64,000 bases of DNA, taken from contig JAPWJX010000001.1 in the NCBI GenBank assembly GCA_028283855.1, positions 62,001 to 126,000 on the forward strand, in the 5' to 3' direction. Made by a program: the position numbers and the translations under genes. Under the pieces are notes generated by a model that ran no database searches, had not been told where the DNA came from, and saw nothing but the letters and a program-made list of their open reading frames with translations. The DNA comes from Verrucomicrobium sp. Its GTDB lineage: Bacteria; Verrucomicrobiota; Verrucomicrobiia; Methylacidiphilales; GAS474. Position 1 is the first letter of the stretch. Each line of letters begins with the position of its first letter. Below, piece by piece: positions 1,265 through 57,305 of the stretch.

Positions 1265-1278
1265 TAATTCGGCTATTT
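1265..1278 (-). promoter_or_regulatory. shared 14-base element, copy A
   Basis: On the minus strand this reads AAATAGCCGAATTA, identical to 53906-53919 and 60081-60094. It ends 17 bases before the start codon at 1247, with an AGGAGG site between. On the plus strand the overlapping TATAAT (1263-1268) could also serve pyrE, whose ATG is at 1289. Its position fits a promoter -10 region or an operator; which one cannot be decided from sequence. Confidence 0.55.
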
Positions 1279-49702: not shown

Positions 49703-51081
49703 AAACCCGTCTTGCCGGCCTGTTCCTTTCCCTGTGGCTGGCGGGTTGCGCCGTGGGGCCGGACTACCACCGGCCCACCGTGGACATGCCGCCGGACTGG
49801 GGCTGGAAGATAGCGGAGCCCGCCGACGACCGGATCAAGCCCGACTGGTGGACCTCTTTCGGCGATCCGGTCCTGAACGATTTGGAGACGCGCGCGGGCA
49901 AGGCCAACCAGCAGGTCCTGGCCGCCCTCTCCCGCATCGACGGAGCCCGCGCCACGGCCCGCATCGCCAAGTCGGAGTTCTTCCCCGAGCTGAGCCTGGA
50001 CCCTTCCGCGAAGCGTTACAAAACGCCTCCCACCGTGGTGCCGCAGAATTTCACCGCCAACACCTTCACCGTTCCCCTGGATTTGAGCTATGAGATCGAC
50101 CTCTGGGGGCGGGTCCGTCGTTCCTACGAGGGGGCCCAGGCCCGGGCGCAGGCCAGCGTGGCCGATTACTACAACGTGCTCCTTTCCCTGCGCGGGGAGG
50201 TGGCCATCCAGTATTTTCTCCTGCGGCAAATGGACGCCCAGCAGGAGATCTTTGAGCGTGTCGCCGCCCTGCGGCAAAAGGAGGCCGAGCTGAAGGAGGA
50301 GCGCTTCCGCGGCGGCCTGATCGCCGGCTCCGAGCTGGACCGGGCCCGTACGCAGTGGAAGCTGGCCAAGAGCCAGGCCGTGGAGGCGGCGCGCCAGCGG
50401 GAGGAGCTCCAGAGCGGCTTGGCTCTCCTGTGCGGGGAGGCGGCTCCTTCCTTCCGCATCCCTCCGGCGACCTCCCTCGGCGCTGTGCCCCGGATTCCCG
50501 TGGGGCTGCCCGCTTCCCTTCTGGAGCGGCGGCCGGACGTGGCGCGGGCGGAGCGGAAGATGCAGGCGGCCAATGCCGACATCGGCGTGGCCTACGCCGC
50601 CTATTTCCCCGCCTTGAGCCTGACGGGGGACGCGGGCTATTCCAGCTTCAAGGCGGGCAGCCTGCTGGATTGGGAGAACCGCCTCTTCCAGATCGGGCCC
50701 AGCGCGACGCTGCCCCTGCTCAACGGCGGCCGGATCGCCGCGGGGGTCAGCAGCGCCCGGGCCGCCTACCAGGCCACCTGCGCCGATTACCGGCAGACCG
50801 TCCTGGCCGCGCTGCGGGACGTGACGGACGCGCTGGACGACCTGCACCATTATGAGGAACAGGCCTCCCTCCTGCGCGAAGCGACGACCGATGCCGCGGC
50901 GACGGAGGATCTCTCCCGCCGAAATTTCCAGGGCGGCGTGACGAATTACCTCCAGGTCACGGAGGCGGAGGGCGGGCGCCTGCAGGCCCGGCTGGAAGGG
51001 GTGCGGGCGGAGGCGATGGAGCGCATTGCCTCCGTACGCCTGTTTAAGGCGCTGGGCGGGGGCTTCCAGTCCGGATCTTAA
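49699..51081 (+). CDS. NodT-family outer-membrane efflux lipoprotein
   Basis: 460 residues. Lipobox LAGC (about residues 14-17) predicts a lipidated outer-membrane channel of the TolC/NodT type. Both OEP repeats are present, each with the Glu/Ala-rich helical pattern, and LLERRPDVARAERKMQAANA is the family signature. Completes the four-gene pump. Its stop overlaps the stop of the convergent 98-residue gene by 3 bases, so the pump operon ends exactly where the ankyrin operon ends. Confidence 0.95.
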   Translation: MKTRLAGLFLSLWLAGCAVGPDYHRPTVDMPPDWGWKIAEPADDRIKPDWWTSFGDPVLNDLETRAGKANQQVLAALSRIDGARATARIAKSEFFPELSLDPSAKRYKTPPTVVPQNFTANTFTVPLDLSYEIDLWGRVRRSYEGAQARAQASVADYYNVLLSLRGEVAIQYFLLRQMDAQQEIFERVAALRQKEAELKEERFRGGLIAGSELDRARTQWKLAKSQAVEAARQREELQSGLALLCGEAAPSFRIPPATSLGAVPRIPVGLPASLLERRPDVARAERKMQAANADIGVAYAAYFPALSLTGDAGYSSFKAGSLLDWENRLFQIGPSATLPLLNGGRIAAGVSSARAAYQATCADYRQTVLAALRDVTDALDDLHHYEEQASLLREATTDAAATEDLSRRNFQGGVTNYLQVTEAEGGRLQARLEGVRAEAMERIASVRLFKALGGGFQSGS

Positions 51082-51374
51082 TCCCGCTGTTCCAGGAAAA
51101 GCGTCTTCTGCTGGCCGGATTGGTCGACGGCGCGGGCCGCTTCCTCCAGCGTGACGCCGCTGCCCGCCGGAAGGAGGACGGTGGCGATGGCGATGTCCGC
51201 CAGCGCCCGCCGCAGGGCTTCCAGGGAATCGGCCTGGGCGGTGGCGGGATCTTTCTGCAAAAGCATCGGCTCCCATTCCCCTTCCAGGCGGTAGATGCGG
51301 CGAGCGGCGTCCAGGGGGGAGGCCAGGCAACGCTGCCGCGCCAGGCGGGCTAGGGAGACCAGGGAGGCGCTCAC
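51078..51374 (-). CDS. 98-residue protein at the end of the VWA-ankyrin-AAA operon
   Basis: 98 residues, mostly helical, Ala/Leu/Arg/Glu-rich, with one cysteine and no signal peptide. It starts 5 bases after the AAA ATPase stop and is the last of eight co-directional genes. A helical bundle accessory or adaptor to the ATPase is plausible from position only. Not recognised. Confidence 0.7.
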   Translation of the reverse strand: MSASLVSLARLARQRCLASPLDAARRIYRLEGEWEPMLLQKDPATAQADSLEALRRALADIAIATVLLPAGSGVTLEEAARAVDQSGQQKTLFLEQRD

Positions 51375-51378
51375 GGCC

Positions 51379-53889
51379 TCAGCCTTTCGCGGTGGCGCGG
51401 GCCGGTTCCAGGTAGACGGGGAAGCTGGGAATCTCCCCGCTGCGGCGGATCAGGGAATCGAGCAGGGGGGTGGACGACCGCGTGAGAGGCGTGCCCGGCT
51501 CCCCGGCCTGCCGCAGTTCCAGAGCCTGCTGAAGGAGGGTTTCCTTTTCCTTGGGAACGTGGACCCACTTATCCAGTGCCTTGCCGATTTGCGCGGAGGC
51601 GTCCCGGTCCGTCCGGTCGACGTAGAGGATGTCGGCCTTCTTGAGGAGGTTTTCCAAATCGGGGGTCAGGGAGGTCTCGCCGGTGATCAGCGTCTTGCCT
51701 TCGCGCGCGTTGCGGACGATCCGCAGTTCCTCCGGCCCCTTGCCTCCCGCCACGTCGGCGCAGAGGAGGGTGGTGATGGCCAGGCCGCTGGGGGACTGGT
51801 TTTGCGCCGCCGCGATGGTGGGGATCAGCTTGGCTTGTTCGGGATCGGGGACGTCCAGGGAGACGCCGACGTTGGCGTTCCACAGGGCGTCGAGGTTCTT
51901 CCCGCTCAGGCCGGGCAGGGCCAGCGCGGTGAGGGTTTCCCGGAAGGAGAGGATGTCGTGGGATCCCTGGCCGTCGAGGATCAGGGAATCGCCCACCGGC
52001 AGGAGGGAGAGGGGGGCGGAGTCGCCCACGGTGCCTTCCAGAAAGTGGGGATTGCCCACGCAGAGGAATTTGGTGGTGGGCGTTTCCAGGCTCTTGCGCT
52101 CCTCTTCCAGGCGGTTGACGCAGAGCTGGAGGTCGAGCGGCTTGATCAGGCTGTCGTCCGAGCCCTTCAGCTGGGGGTAGAACTCCCGCAGCTGGGCGCA
52201 GAGGATTTTCTGCAGGGTTTCCGTCTCCGGGGAGAGCTGCAGGCCCTTGTAGGGATCGTTGTCCAGCAGCTTGGAGATGGGCTTGAGGTTGGGATTGGCG
52301 GTGGCCTCGGCAAAGGAGGTACCGGTGATGCCGTGGTCGGTCGCCTTTTGCAGCAGGAGCTTGTGCAGGTTCGGCTTCCCCTGGCGCAGGGAGGCGTTCT
52401 CAATGGCTTGGAGGACGGTCAATTCCAGGTTGGTGCCCAGGAAGCGGTCCGGGGTGACGCGGGGCGAGGGGGAGACGGCGGGCGGCTGGCTCCAGTCCTG
52501 CGTCACGTCCAGGCCCGCGCTTTGGGACAGGGGGATGGAGTGGGGACGGGGCTTCAGCGCCTCGTTGACGTGGTCGATGATCATGCGCAGGCCGCTGCCC
52601 AGGCGGCGGCGGTCCTGCTCGTCGACTTCCATCATGATTTCCGAAGGGCGGTTCGGCGATTCGGGGTCGAGGAGGTTGTCCCAGTCCTTGTAGAATCCGG
52701 CCAGCTGCCGGGCGGCCTGGAGGACGTCGGCCTGCTTCTCGATCATGCGGTAGTGCCAGTCGGGCACGTTTTCCTTTTCGGCGGGGGAAAGGCCCAGGTG
52801 GCGGACGCTTTTCCAGAAGGCCGTCGCCTTCTTCGGCTCCAGGCCGGCGGCCAGGGGCAGCTTATTCAGGGTGGAAAGGGGCAGGCCGGTCAGCATGTGG
52901 CTGATCTGGTGCTCGTAGTCCTCCTTCGTCGCGTCGGGGACGAAGCGGGGCTGCAGGCGGCTGTATTCGGAATAGTCGCGGTCCTTGATGCCGACGCCGT
53001 CCGATTTCATGTTGCCGGTCAGGTCGCAGAAGAAGCCGGGCTTCATATCCTTCCGGCGGAAGGTGAATTTGAGGCCGCCGGCGCCTTCCACGGTCGTCTC
53101 CGGCGACTGGCCGATGAGGACTTCCCAGACGGGATAGAGCTTGGCGTCGGTGGAGGGGTCGGTCCGCATGTATTCCTCGCCGATGAAGGGGCGGCCTTCG
53201 TTCCAGGCGCGGATGAGGGGGCCGAAGCGGGTCTTGATGGGCAGGCTGTCGAGGCCCGCGTCCAGACGCTCCAGGCCGCGCACCTTTTCCAGGGCCTGGA
53301 AGGCCGGATGGGCGGCCTTGTCGGCGGAGAGCTTTACGTCTCCCCAGGCGATGATGGCTGTGCCGTCGTCCTTTTCCGTGAAATGTTCGCCGAAGGTTTC
53401 CTTTAGGATCTGGAAGGAAAGGGGATTGAGCGTCTTTTCCGCCAGCCGTTCCTCGACGATCTTGTAGACGCTGCGGCCCGCCTTGTCGGCGTCCAGGACC
53501 GTCTCGAAAAGGGCGTTTTCCGCGTTCTCCGCGAAGTTGAAAATCACGGCGCCTTCCGGCGTCTGCATGCGGCCCAGGACGCCCAGGTCGTGGGACTTGC
53601 CCATGCCCGGGGGGCCCACCGTCAGGCGCAGCTTGCGCCGGGCGTCGGGCTGGCGGGCGATGATCCCCTCCTGTTGCAGGGAGAGCATGCTGGGGTAGGG
53701 CAGTTCCCGGAGAGCCAGGCCCATGACCTCCGCGTAAGGGCGCTTGCTGTAGAAAAGGAGCGGTTCTTCCAGGGCTTCCAGGGTGGGCGGGATATAGGTC
53801 CCGTCGTCCAGGGTGCGGGAAGTGCCCATCGTGGGGTAAGGCCGTCCCGGCGCGCCCAGGGCGATGGGGTGGAGGGAAGCGTCGTCCAT
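51379..53889 (-). CDS. MoxR-like AAA ATPase of the ankyrin operon
   Basis: 836 residues. Residues about 85-330 carry an AAA core of the MoxR/AAA_5 kind: Walker A GPPGMGKS (92-99), a Walker-B-like RPFIGEE (233-239), sensor-1-like LTGN (290-293) and an arginine-finger-like SRLQPRF (310-316). Walker B has Gly-Glu-Glu where hydrophobic-Asp-Glu is usual, so hydrolysis may be altered. The remaining 500 residues are helical followed by an alpha/beta region (600-830) that I do not recognise. MoxR ATPases work with VWA proteins as chaperone-like pairs, and a VWA gene begins this operon. The ATG at 53889 has no ribosome binding site but the 14-base element lies 16 bases before it. Confidence 0.8.
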   Translation of the reverse strand: MDDASLHPIALGAPGRPYPTMGTSRTLDDGTYIPPTLEALEEPLLFYSKRPYAEVMGLALRELPYPSMLSLQQEGIIARQPDARRKLRLTVGPPGMGKSHDLGVLGRMQTPEGAVIFNFAENAENALFETVLDADKAGRSVYKIVEERLAEKTLNPLSFQILKETFGEHFTEKDDGTAIIAWGDVKLSADKAAHPAFQALEKVRGLERLDAGLDSLPIKTRFGPLIRAWNEGRPFIGEEYMRTDPSTDAKLYPVWEVLIGQSPETTVEGAGGLKFTFRRKDMKPGFFCDLTGNMKSDGVGIKDRDYSEYSRLQPRFVPDATKEDYEHQISHMLTGLPLSTLNKLPLAAGLEPKKATAFWKSVRHLGLSPAEKENVPDWHYRMIEKQADVLQAARQLAGFYKDWDNLLDPESPNRPSEIMMEVDEQDRRRLGSGLRMIIDHVNEALKPRPHSIPLSQSAGLDVTQDWSQPPAVSPSPRVTPDRFLGTNLELTVLQAIENASLRQGKPNLHKLLLQKATDHGITGTSFAEATANPNLKPISKLLDNDPYKGLQLSPETETLQKILCAQLREFYPQLKGSDDSLIKPLDLQLCVNRLEEERKSLETPTTKFLCVGNPHFLEGTVGDSAPLSLLPVGDSLILDGQGSHDILSFRETLTALALPGLSGKNLDALWNANVGVSLDVPDPEQAKLIPTIAAAQNQSPSGLAITTLLCADVAGGKGPEELRIVRNAREGKTLITGETSLTPDLENLLKKADILYVDRTDRDASAQIGKALDKWVHVPKEKETLLQQALELRQAGEPGTPLTRSSTPLLDSLIRRSGEIPSFPVYLEPARATAKG

Positions 53890-53905
53890 AAGAGAGGGTT
53901 GAAGG

Positions 53906-53919
53906 TAATTCGGCTATTT
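53906..53919 (-). promoter_or_regulatory. shared 14-base element, copy B
   Basis: Minus-strand AAATAGCCGAATTA, identical to copies A and C. Its TAG is the stop codon of the preceding ankyrin gene (53914-53916), so the element is partly coding here. It lies 16 bases before the AAA ATPase start and could be an internal promoter or control site. Confidence 0.55.
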
Positions 53920-54708
53920 CGCGGGGGGATTTCCCTGAAAAAGCCCGGGATTTTGGCCTCTTGTTTCCGGGAAGGACGGGCTGGGACGGCGGGCGGCGCC
54001 AAAGGCCTGGGGACCTAGCCTGGGCAGCGGGTGGCGGCTCAAAAGGAGCGTTTCATGGGCCGCGCGGTCAAAGTCGACCTGGGGGCGGTGCTTTTCCGGG
54101 ACGTGCTCCCACAGCCGGCGCATTTCTGGGAAGCGGCCCAGCCAAAGGGCGGGGGAGAAGACCTGCTCCAGGTGGCCGTTATTGCCCGCCAAAAGGAGAG
54201 GGGTGCGATGATTGTACGTGTTGAGAAGGAAATGTTCCGGGAGGAGGACCTGGCCGGACTCCCGCAGCACGGCGGCGATTTGCTCCAGGTGGCCGCCCCA
54301 GGCCGCCCGGTGCAGGGCGGTCCGTTTGTCCCGGTCTGTGACCAGCAGATGGTCCAGGGAGAGGGATTGGCCCGATTCCTTGAGAATCGCGGCGAGCCGG
54401 TCGAGGTGGCCGCTTTGCGCCGCCTGATGGAAGAGAGTCCGGCCTGAGCGGTCCTTCAGGAGGCAGTGCTCCAGGGAAAAAGGAGTGCCCGTCGTCTTGA
54501 GAATCGAGGCGACTTCGCCGATGGCGCCTTTTCCGACGGCCAAGTGGAAGGCGGTCGATCCGTTGCTGTCCCGGAGGAGGAAGTGATCCAGGGAGAGCCG
54601 GTGCCTTTGGGAGAATTCCTGCAGGCGATGCTCCGCAATGGCGCCGTGGAGCCGTTGCCGCGTCTCCTCGTTCAACGGGAGCGGAGTTTTGAATGGGAAA
54701 AGACGCAT
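53914..54708 (-). CDS. ankyrin-like repeat protein 4
   Basis: 264 residues. Four 39-residue repeats of the kind LS-x-(D/E)H-(F/C/L)LL...G-x-T-x-(F/L)H-x-A...GHL-(D/E)-x-(L/I)AA-x-L start near residue 38 and run to about 190, with the ankyrin TxxH and GHL positions evident. Then the shared C-terminal module: FSPALWLGRFPEMRRLW, HVPEK, a Phe-Asp segment, AHETLLL and a tail with FGAARRPS. No signal peptide or membrane helix. Starts 5 bases after ankyrin gene 3 and ends with the 14-base element around its stop codon. A basic tail with Pro follows. Confidence 0.85.
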   Translation of the reverse strand: MRLFPFKTPLPLNEETRQRLHGAIAEHRLQEFSQRHRLSLDHFLLRDSNGSTAFHLAVGKGAIGEVASILKTTGTPFSLEHCLLKDRSGRTLFHQAAQSGHLDRLAAILKESGQSLSLDHLLVTDRDKRTALHRAAWGGHLEQIAAVLRESGQVLLPEHFLLNTYNHRTPLLLAGNNGHLEQVFSPALWLGRFPEMRRLWEHVPEKHRPQVDFDRAAHETLLLSRHPLPRLGPQAFGAARRPSPSFPETRGQNPGLFQGNPPAK

Positions 54709-54712
54709 GGAG

Positions 54713-55603
54713 CTAGGAGGAGCGTTCGCGGCGGGGAGAGTCCTGGACCGGCAAGGGGGAGGAGGGGCGCGCCGCCGTGCGGAAGGAGTCCTTTTCCAGG
54801 AGCGGAAGGGTCCGTTTTAGGAGGAGAGTTTCATGCAGCCATTCCTGGAAGGGGATTTGGCCCCGCTTGGCTTCCGGGACGTGGTTCCAGAGGGCCAGCA
54901 TTTCCGGCGCCCGGCCCGCCCACCGGGCGGGGACGAAGACGCGGTCGAGATGTTCGCTCAGGACGGCCCGTTCCAGCGGGGTGGCTCCCTGCTTGTCCGG
55001 GAGGAGGAGCAGGGCGGAGGTGAAAGGCGTTTTTCCGGCAGGCCGCACGATCTCCTCCACCTGGTCGAGGCAGCCGCGGGAGGCCGCCCAATGCAGGGCG
55101 GTTTGGCCGAATTGGTTCGGCCGCAGAAAGTGGTCCAGCTCCAGGACCTGCCCCGACTTTTTCAGCAGCGCGGCGATCCGGTCCAGCTGGCGTTTATTGG
55201 TGGCCCAATGGAGGAGGGTGTTGTCCGCCCCGTGATCGGCCAGGACATGGGAGAGGGTGAGGGTTTCGTCCGATGCCTGGAGCAGGGAGGCCACCTGATT
55301 CAGGTTTCCTTTGTCGGCGGCGAGCTGCAGCGCGGTGTTCCCTAGATGGTCCTTGGCCATGAGGTGATCGAGGGAAAGCGTCTCCCCGTTTTTCCGGAGA
55401 TGGGTGGCGACGGTCGTGAGCCAGCCGCATTCCGCCGCCTTCGTCAGCGGGGTTCCCGACGGGGTGTCGGTGAGAAAGTGCGCCAGGGAAAGGCGGCGAT
55501 GCCTGAAAAAATGGGAAACGCTCCCCTCCTGGATGGCGTGCCGCAGGTCGAGGGCCGCGGCCACGTCGGCGGGCGGGGTGAATTTGGAATCGGAAGGTTC
55601 CAT
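54713..55603 (-). CDS. ankyrin-like repeat protein 3
   Basis: 296 residues from ATG 55603 (the frame is open upstream but overlaps ankyrin gene 2 antisense to its codons). Five repeats of 39 residues from about residue 38, e.g. LSLDHLMAKDHLGNTALQLA and LTLSHVLADHGADNTLLHWA, then the C-terminal module FVPARWAGRAPEMLALW, NHVPE, HETLLL and SFRTAARPS. Begins 2 bases after ankyrin gene 2, so translation is coupled. Clearly a paralogue of the three neighbours; the repeats differ enough that the duplications are old. Confidence 0.85.
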   Translation of the reverse strand: MEPSDSKFTPPADVAAALDLRHAIQEGSVSHFFRHRRLSLAHFLTDTPSGTPLTKAAECGWLTTVATHLRKNGETLSLDHLMAKDHLGNTALQLAADKGNLNQVASLLQASDETLTLSHVLADHGADNTLLHWATNKRQLDRIAALLKKSGQVLELDHFLRPNQFGQTALHWAASRGCLDQVEEIVRPAGKTPFTSALLLLPDKQGATPLERAVLSEHLDRVFVPARWAGRAPEMLALWNHVPEAKRGQIPFQEWLHETLLLKRTLPLLEKDSFRTAARPSSPLPVQDSPRRERSS

Positions 55604-55605
55604 GC

Positions 55606-56388
55606 CTAGGGGGTTCGTCCCTGCGCGGGCGGGGTCTTTTGCTCCGGCGGCTCCAGTTCCGTGCGCCGGGCCGTGCGGAAGGCCTCCGGGGCAAGGAGGG
55701 CGATGGGCCTGCGGCTCAATAAGAGAGTCTCGTGCAGGAGTTGCTCGAAGGGGGCCTGGCCCTGCTTGGGAAGGGGCACGTGGCTCCAAAGGCGGCTCAT
55801 CTCCTGCGGCCGTCCCACCCACAGGGAGGGCTGAAAAACGGTGGCCAGATGGCCCGCGCTGGCGGCGAGGCTTAACGGCGTGTCGCCGTGCTCCTCTTCC
55901 AAAAGGAGGTGGTCGGCGGAAAGGGTTTCCCCCGTTTTCTGAAGGATGGAGAAGGCCTGGCCGATGTGGCCGCGGCTCACGGCCTCGTGCAGCGGCGTCG
56001 AGCCGCCCTTGTCCGGGGTCAACAGGTTGGCCAGGGTCAGCTGCTGGCCGAATTCCTTGAGGACGGAGGCCATCTGGTCCAGATGCCCGGTCCAAGCGGC
56101 GCTATGGAGCGGGGTCATGTCCATGATCGACTTGGCCAGCACGTGGCCGATGAGCAGGGGCTCCTTCGCCTCCTTGAGGACGGCGGCCAATTGGTCCATC
56201 TGCCCGGCGAAGGCGAGCTTGTGCAGCGGGGTTGTGCGGTCGTTCCACTGCTGCAGTAGGAAGTGGTCGATGGAGAGGGCGTGGTTTTTGGCGAAGGCGG
56301 GCAGGTGGCCCTCGTCGATGGCCTTGCAAAGCCGTTTCCGGGTTCCCTCGTTCAAGGCGGGGCGGGTTCTTAGGGAAAAAATCCTCAT
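55606..56388 (-). CDS. ankyrin-like repeat protein 2
   Basis: 260 residues. N-terminal 35 residues resemble ankyrin protein 4 (MRIFSLRTRPALNEGTRKRL against MRLFPFKTPLPLNEETRQRL), then four repeats of about 39 residues (LSIDHFLLQQWNDRTTPLHKLA, here split: LSIDHFLLQQ and RTTPLHKLA) and the C-terminal module FQPSLWVGRPQEMSRLW, SHVP, HETLLL, AFRTARRTE. The ATG overlaps the ankyrin 1 stop by 4 bases. The shared N-terminus with protein 4 suggests these two are the closest pair. Confidence 0.85.
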   Translation of the reverse strand: MRIFSLRTRPALNEGTRKRLCKAIDEGHLPAFAKNHALSIDHFLLQQWNDRTTPLHKLAFAGQMDQLAAVLKEAKEPLLIGHVLAKSIMDMTPLHSAAWTGHLDQMASVLKEFGQQLTLANLLTPDKGGSTPLHEAVSRGHIGQAFSILQKTGETLSADHLLLEEEHGDTPLSLAASAGHLATVFQPSLWVGRPQEMSRLWSHVPLPKQGQAPFEQLLHETLLLSRRPIALLAPEAFRTARRTELEPPEQKTPPAQGRTP

Positions 56389-57296
56389 GCCTTGCTCCGG
56401 GCGCCGGGCGCGTGGGCGTTTTCCAGGGCCGGAATGGAAAGGGCGGGGCGCACGGCGGTGCGGAAGGCGCCGGGGTCGAAGCGGGGACGGCCGGGCAGGC
56501 TAAGCAGGGCCGTTTCGTCGCAGATCTGCCCGAAATCGATTTGGGACCGGTGTTTTTCCGGGACATGGCTCCACAGCTGGAGCATGGCCGGCAGGCGTCC
56601 TTGCCAGAGGGTCGGCTGGAAGATTTGGTCCAGGACTTGGCGTTGGATGGCCAGGTCCAGGGTGGTCTGGCCAAGGTTGTCCTTTAGGAGCAGCTGCTCC
56701 GGCAGGACGGCCTGGCCGGAATCGCGCAGGATGCGGGAAACCTGGCCAAGGGCCTTGAAGGCGACGGCCCAAAACAAGTAATTCCTGCCACCCTTATCCG
56801 TGGCCAGGAAATGCTCCGAGGAAAGGGGCTGGCCGGAATCCTTTGCCAGAAGGGCGGCGTGTTCGAGGCCGCCTTTGCAGAGGGCCCAATGCAGCGGGGT
56901 TTGACCGTCCTGGCCGGGGACAAGGAAGTGCCGCGGGGAAAGGGCTTGGCCGGAGGCCTTCAAGAGGGAGGCGATTTGTTCGAGCCGCCCGACGGTGGCC
57001 GCCAGCCATAGCGGAGTGTCCCCCTCTTTGTTCGGGACCAGGAAATGATCCGGCGACAGGGGATGTCCGGCCTCTTTGAGAGCGCGGGCTATTTGGTCGA
57101 GGCCGCCGCTGAGAACCGCCTTGTGAAAGAGGGTGTCGCCGTTTTTGCTTCGGATGAGAAAGTGTTTGGGAGAGAGCGCGTATGTCTGGCCTAGCAAGGG
57201 CAGCTCTTCCATCTGCATGGCCGTCAGCAGGCGGCTGAACGTCTTCCTGCTAAGGGGCAGGGACTTTTTCTTGGGTGATTTGCCGAAGGAGAGCAT
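56385..57296 (-). CDS. ankyrin-like repeat protein 1
   Basis: 303 residues and the most regular of the set. Five repeats start at residues 41, 80, 119, 158 and 197, an exact 39-residue period, each opening LSP-x-HFL or similar and containing G-x-T-x-L and G-x-L-x-Q-I. Canonical ankyrin repeats are 33 residues, so six residues are added, probably as an extended loop containing the (D/E/K/R)HFL element. The C-terminal module follows (FQPTLWQGRLPAMLQLW, SHVPEKHR, DETALL, AFRTAVRPA). The N-terminus is basic (MLSFGKSPKKKS). No secretion signal seen. Confidence 0.87.
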   Translation of the reverse strand: MLSFGKSPKKKSLPLSRKTFSRLLTAMQMEELPLLGQTYALSPKHFLIRSKNGDTLFHKAVLSGGLDQIARALKEAGHPLSPDHFLVPNKEGDTPLWLAATVGRLEQIASLLKASGQALSPRHFLVPGQDGQTPLHWALCKGGLEHAALLAKDSGQPLSSEHFLATDKGGRNYLFWAVAFKALGQVSRILRDSGQAVLPEQLLLKDNLGQTTLDLAIQRQVLDQIFQPTLWQGRLPAMLQLWSHVPEKHRSQIDFGQICDETALLSLPGRPRFDPGAFRTAVRPALSIPALENAHAPGARSKA

Positions 57297-57305
57297 GGAG
57301 TCCCG

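What the first reader, a model, noticed from the sequence alone, without database searches (positions are those of the whole stretch)
53914..57296. Novel shared C-terminal module in the four ankyrin proteins
After the repeats all four end with (V/I)F-x-P-x-LW-x-GR-x-x-(E/A)M-x-x-LW-x-HVP, then F, then (H/D)ET-(L/A)LL, then a variable stretch and (A/S)F-(R/G)-(T/A)-A-x-R. The pattern is conserved although the repeats diverge, so it probably binds a common partner (AAA, VWA or the 98-residue protein).
Basis: seen in the sequence. Interest (0 to 1): 0.7.

Follow-up and report, generated by a model that had tools for sequence, protein, structure and literature searches.

The report
Shared tail of private ankyrin family
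Four neighbouring bacterial proteins built of ankyrin repeats end in the same previously undescribed segment, and the same ending occurs on fourteen related proteins at four places in this one genome, which looks like a set of interchangeable binding proteins with a fixed handle.

Summary
The C-terminal pattern is on 14 paralogous ankyrin proteins at four loci of this genome. Profiles trained on one locus find every module of the other loci and no shuffled or control sequence. It has two parts: a ~48-residue helical core that folds confidently even alone, and a short AFRxAxR box in a low-confidence tail. Core and box are the most conserved parts, while synonymous sites are about equally diverged everywhere. 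The repeats vary most at the ankyrin binding face. Hence: variable recognition face, constant C-terminal cap-plus-peptide, probably docking on one partner (inferred). No convincing relative was found outside this genome, within the limits of the searches. The operon-partner idea is weakened: the other three loci lack VWA, AAA and 98-residue genes; partnership in trans remains possible. In passing: AATAGCCGAAT occurs 66 times in this genome, at most once in two genus mates, just upstream of start codons of these clusters and of mostly unannotated genes, suggesting a private regulon.

The parts
56385..57296 (-). ankyrin gene 1 of the tandem (303 aa)
   Evidence: Ank_2 over cut-off
56388..56624 (-). 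its C-terminal module (IFQPTLW...; box AFRTAVR at 56448-56468)
55606..56388 (-). ankyrin gene 2 (260 aa), start overlaps previous stop (ATGA)
   Evidence: AF2 model
55609..55839 (-). its C-terminal module (box AFRTARR at 55663-55683)
54713..55603 (-). ankyrin gene 3 (296 aa, ATG 55603)
54716..54940 (-). its C-terminal module (box SFRTAAR at 54767-54787)
53914..54708 (-). ankyrin gene 4 (264 aa)
53917..54162 (-). its C-terminal module (box AFGAARR at 53986-54006)
57435..60068 (-). first gene of the putative operon: 877 aa with HEIAH (residue 181) and VWA-type DGSGS (residue 642) motifs; single copy in the genome
   Evidence: no Pfam match at 0.1
60083..60093 (-). AATAGCCGAAT box upstream of the 877-aa gene
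53908..53918 (-). AATAGCCGAAT box overlapping the stop of ankyrin gene 4, upstream of the P-loop gene
51379..53889 (-). 836-aa P-loop protein (GPPGMGKS at residue 92) with a weak barstar-like stretch (residues 637-712)
51078..51374 (-). 98-residue protein, no family

Best explanation
A genome-private family of 14 'variable face, constant handle' ankyrin proteins. Shown: ankyrin repeats of about 39 residues, followed by a helical C-terminal core that is conserved across paralogs, and a separate conserved AFRxAxR box in a low-confidence tail. Inferred: the core seals the end of the repeat solenoid and, with the box acting as a tethered peptide, docks every family member onto one common partner or machine, while the repeats, which are most variable at the classical ankyrin binding positions, each recognise a different target. 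The partner is unknown.
For: 14 modules in 4 loci, 8 invariant residues; one-locus training recovers all others. Identity: core 49.5% and box 61.5% against repeats 34%. pS is about equal everywhere (0.52-0.64) while pN falls from 0.476 (repeats) to 0.345 (core) and 0.255 (box). The five positions varied in designed ankyrins (recalled: 2, 3, 5, 13, 14) have entropy 3.56 against 1.98 for the rest, 0 of 20,000 random sets as high, and pN 0.70 against pS 0.64 there. AF2: repeats and core mostly above pLDDT 90, tail under 60; core alone 84-93. Full-length profile hits in six other genomes stop at model position 183 or before, short of the module.
Against: No partner is identified and no complex was modelled. 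The same positions are variable in ankyrin repeats generally, so this is not proof of target diversification; distances are near saturation, so no claim of positive selection is made. Conservation of the core could be purely structural. The paralogs may still share one target.
Confidence: 0.5

Rival explanations
1. Only a C-terminal cap: the module is a divergent last repeat that closes the hydrophobic core and has no partner.
For: Core helices continue directly from the last repeat; structural alignments to longer ankyrin proteins run to model residues 219-228, beyond the last recognisable repeat.
Against: Core is more conserved than the repeat framework; it is predicted confidently alone; the best conserved stretch, the box, lies at the edge of the low-confidence tail; profile comparison of module with repeat is not significant.
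Confidence: 0.22
2. A C-terminal sorting or translocation signal for proteins sent out of the cell.
For: C-terminal place; proteins headed by the same DNA box have less hydrophobic (3.5 against 5.7 of the last 20 residues, p 3e-11) and slightly more basic C-termini (p 0.02) than 279 control ORFs.
Against: The module's box pattern is in 0 of 59 non-ankyrin box-headed proteins (looser patterns tried afterwards are a lead only). No VirB4 family match; the only FHIPEP match lies in a flagellar cluster. T6SS and contractile systems not tested. Controls were not length-matched.
Confidence: 0.12
3. A homo- or hetero-oligomerisation module among co-translated siblings.
For: Genes are tandem with overlapping or nearly touching ends at three loci, which favours co-production; one invariant and one mostly conserved Trp.
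Against: No direct evidence; the fourth locus (L011) has a DNA box before each gene.
Confidence: 0.09
4. One reading: dock for the operon VWA, P-loop or 98-residue protein.
For: Adjacency in the window; VWA and P-loop genes share the DNA box; VWA single copy.
Against: Three other loci with 10 of 14 copies have no such neighbours.
Confidence: 0.07

Closest known systems
Ank-PRANC (F-box-like) proteins of poxviruses and Orientia (PMC4148323, passages read)
   Same: A family of divergent ankyrin proteins sharing one C-terminal domain; that paper suggests that the C-terminus binds the SCF ubiquitin ligase and the repeats bind a target.
   Different: No PRANC or F-box match in any of 14 modules; no known eukaryotic-host setting; partner unknown. 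An analogy of architecture only.
ASB proteins, ankyrin repeats plus SOCS box (recalled)
   Same: Constant C-terminal adaptor box after variable repeats.
   Different: No SOCS box match; eukaryotic.
C-caps of ankyrin solenoids, such as those of designed ankyrins
   Same: Position and helical nature of the core.
   Different: Longer and conserved, plus a separate tail box; no Foldseek match for the module alone.

Membership tests
Ankyrin repeat proteins | Pfam ankyrin models over curated cut-off | tested here: met
   Four of four window proteins, Ank_2 44-64 bits against 27.3
Ankyrin repeat proteins | helix-loop-helix solenoid | tested here: met
   AF2 model of one protein and PDB ankyrin matches
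Ank-PRANC / F-box | PRANC or F-box sequence domain at the C-terminus | tested here: not met
   14 modules against Pfam at E up to 1: only three other families, one member each, best 0.04
Ank-PRANC / F-box | binds Skp1 or cullin | not testable with these tools
   needs experiment
Any C-terminal domain of solved structure | sequence or fold match in the PDB | tested here: inconclusive
   profile best E 1.6; Foldseek of module alone 0 matches, but the model is small with pTM 0.51

The most novel reading that the evidence does not exclude
This genome carries a private regulon of some 66-100 mostly unannotated genes, each headed by one promoter-like box (AATAGCCGAATTA a few bases before the start codon), and the 14 ankyrin adaptors with their constant C-terminal handle are its recognition arm: a lineage-specific interaction or effector programme with its own transcription signal.
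Probability: 0.2. Interest if true: 0.8.

Novelty: new variant of a known kind. Interest (0 to 1): 0.55.

Why it matters
If right, it is a bacterial counterpart of the ankyrin-plus-adaptor-box families known from poxviruses and animals, expanded to 14 copies in one species, with an undescribed docking domain. The module gives a single bait with which the common partner, and through the repeats the targets, can be found. The shared upstream box, if a promoter, would give a ready list of a private gene programme.

Tried and rejected
Operon neighbours as partner: looked for relatives of the VWA, P-loop and 98-residue proteins by tblastn in 269,949 bases of loci from the same genome (L009-L011 and L047-L092); nothing better than E 0.39.

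Module elsewhere: among 97 other relatives, two weak matches (E 0.002 and 0.009), not seen again in a local scan; among 386 other phylum genomes, one (7.6e-4, stop inside the frame); the two sets overlap and E-values are per genome, so about one such match is expected by chance. Species-genome pattern scan: 74 stretches, none confirmed. Viral contigs: 8 stretches, none confirmed. Plasmids none. Phages: 4 Wolbachia phage records, query residues 33-184 only, i.e. repeats.

Module as a degenerate repeat by profile comparison: not significant. Strict box pattern in other box-headed proteins: 0 of 59; looser patterns tried afterwards gave 5 to 11 of 59, two of them clearly above shuffles (5 against 0.5; 10 against 4.1), and are post hoc. 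Secretion: VirB4 none, FHIPEP only in a flagellar cluster. VWA relatives: none in 97 other relatives, 386 other phylum genomes, species genomes, viral contigs or phages. Papers: 'ankyrin repeat' with 'Verrucomicrobia' and 'effector', 'Methylacidiphilales' with 'ankyrin', and the 11-mer (listings and starts of abstracts only) showed nothing on this module or box; the taxon words were my guess from relatives' genome sizes, not a result. Searches served the comparison with known families; only PMC4148323 was opened, passages only. Rfam: none in 50000-61000.

Full report
What is there. The window holds four tandem minus-strand ankyrin genes (56385-57296, 55606-56388, 54713-55603, 53914-54708), all over Pfam ankyrin cut-offs. 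Upstream on the same strand lies an 877-aa gene with HEIAH and DGSGS motifs, downstream an 836-aa P-loop gene and a 98-aa gene. The labels VWA and AAA rest on motifs: Pfam gave no match to the first at 0.1 and only sub-threshold ones to the second.

The module is a family trait of this genome. A profile of the four proteins found further ankyrin genes at three loci of the same assembly, read as L009, L010 and L011. Aligned, 14 modules share F2, P4, W7, L17, V21, F54, A57 and R59, with G9, R10, E13, M14, R26 and P65 at 90% or more. The module profile returns exactly these 14 in the genome. Training on one locus at a time, all modules of the others are recovered and none of the shuffles or 279 control ORFs. 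In a tree of full proteins the four of L009 and the three of L010 each form a group (100/100 and 98/92); the window and L011 copies intermingle.

Two parts. The AlphaFold2 model of the 260-aa protein (four-row alignment) has mean pLDDT 87, with repeats and module core mostly above 90 and residues 239-260 under 50. The module alone (82 aa, pTM 0.51) keeps a helical core at pLDDT 84-93 and a low tail. The AFRxAxR box sits at residues 236-242, at the edge of the low-confidence tail, yet is the best conserved stretch (61.5% mean pairwise identity; core 49.5%, repeats 34%, last 17 residues 24%). Synonymous difference is about the same in all parts while non-synonymous difference falls in core and box, so the likeness is unlikely to be recent copying of DNA.

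The repeats. Thirty-five internal repeats were cut out (26 of 39 residues, 7 of 40, one each of 38 and 42). They are longer than the usual 33 (recalled) by a short helix seen in the model. The five positions that are varied in designed ankyrins (recalled) are far more variable than the rest, and show no constraint at the codon level (pN 0.70, pS 0.64; framework 0.43, 0.59). This fits a variable recognition face, though the same positions vary in ankyrins at large and all distances are near saturation.

Elsewhere. Nothing convincing outside this genome: see Tried and rejected for each count. Full-length profile matches in six of 97 other genomes cover model positions 11 to 183 at most, i.e. the repeats. 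The complete genus mate G002 has no match; its leuD-leuB region and the next gene, which flank the L011 cluster here, are conserved (82% and 77% DNA identity), and no ankyrin gene was seen in the 15 kb read.

Partner. Only the window copies have the VWA, P-loop and 98-aa genes beside them; the other loci do not. So adjacency does not argue for these as the common partner, but both larger genes carry the same upstream box as the ankyrin clusters and could act in trans.

The box. AATAGCCGAAT occurs 66 times in the assembly, its reversed control 0 times; 0 times in G002, once in G001 and at most 4 times in each of 37 further relatives. AATAGCCGAATTA with up to 2 mismatches: 103 against 12 for the control. 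In 49 of 66 an ATG lies within 18 nt downstream, 12 expected from shuffles, peak at 7-10 nt; an AT-rich patch lies 19-25 nt upstream. ORFs of 45 aa or more start after 63 of 66 sites. Of these 63, 55 were scanned (four ankyrins and four others left out): 11 Pfam families at 0.01 with 16 member-matches in sum, so at least 39 of 55 match nothing. Sites precede the L009 cluster, each of the three L011 genes, the 877-aa gene heading the window cluster and, with 2 mismatches, the L010 cluster. A promoter with leaderless starts is the simplest reading; there are no transcript data here.

Known relatives. Ank-PRANC proteins (PMC4148323, passages read) have the same logic, divergent repeats plus one shared C-terminal domain that recruits a ligase, but the modules here match neither PRANC nor F-box. 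The claim is 'works like', not 'is'.

Verdict. Observation confirmed; the inference of a common partner is reasonable but untested, and the named partners are not favoured by present evidence.

Noticed in passing
window 1267-1277, 53908-53918, 60083-60093 and 63 further sites in the genome: AATAGCCGAAT box just upstream of start codons of mostly unannotated genes; 66 copies here, 0 and 1 in two genus mates.
   Followed up: partly
window 57435-60068: 877-aa protein combining a HEIAH zinc-protease-like motif and a VWA-type DGSGS motif; no relative found in any genome searched.
   Followed up: partly
window 51379-53889: P-loop protein with a sub-threshold barstar-like stretch at residues 637-712 (Pfam E 0.0027).
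   Followed up: no
L057, L059, L070, L091: Box-headed hexapeptide-repeat proteins, four related members; a three-member ChaN-like family is also box-headed (L056 twice, L071).
   Followed up: no
59 box-headed non-ankyrin proteins (loci L047-L092 and window): C-termini are less hydrophobic and slightly more basic than those of 279 control ORFs (not length-matched).
   Followed up: partly
L011 8215-8225 and 9006-9016: The box contains the TAG stop codon of the preceding ankyrin gene, so box and gene end overlap.
   Followed up: no
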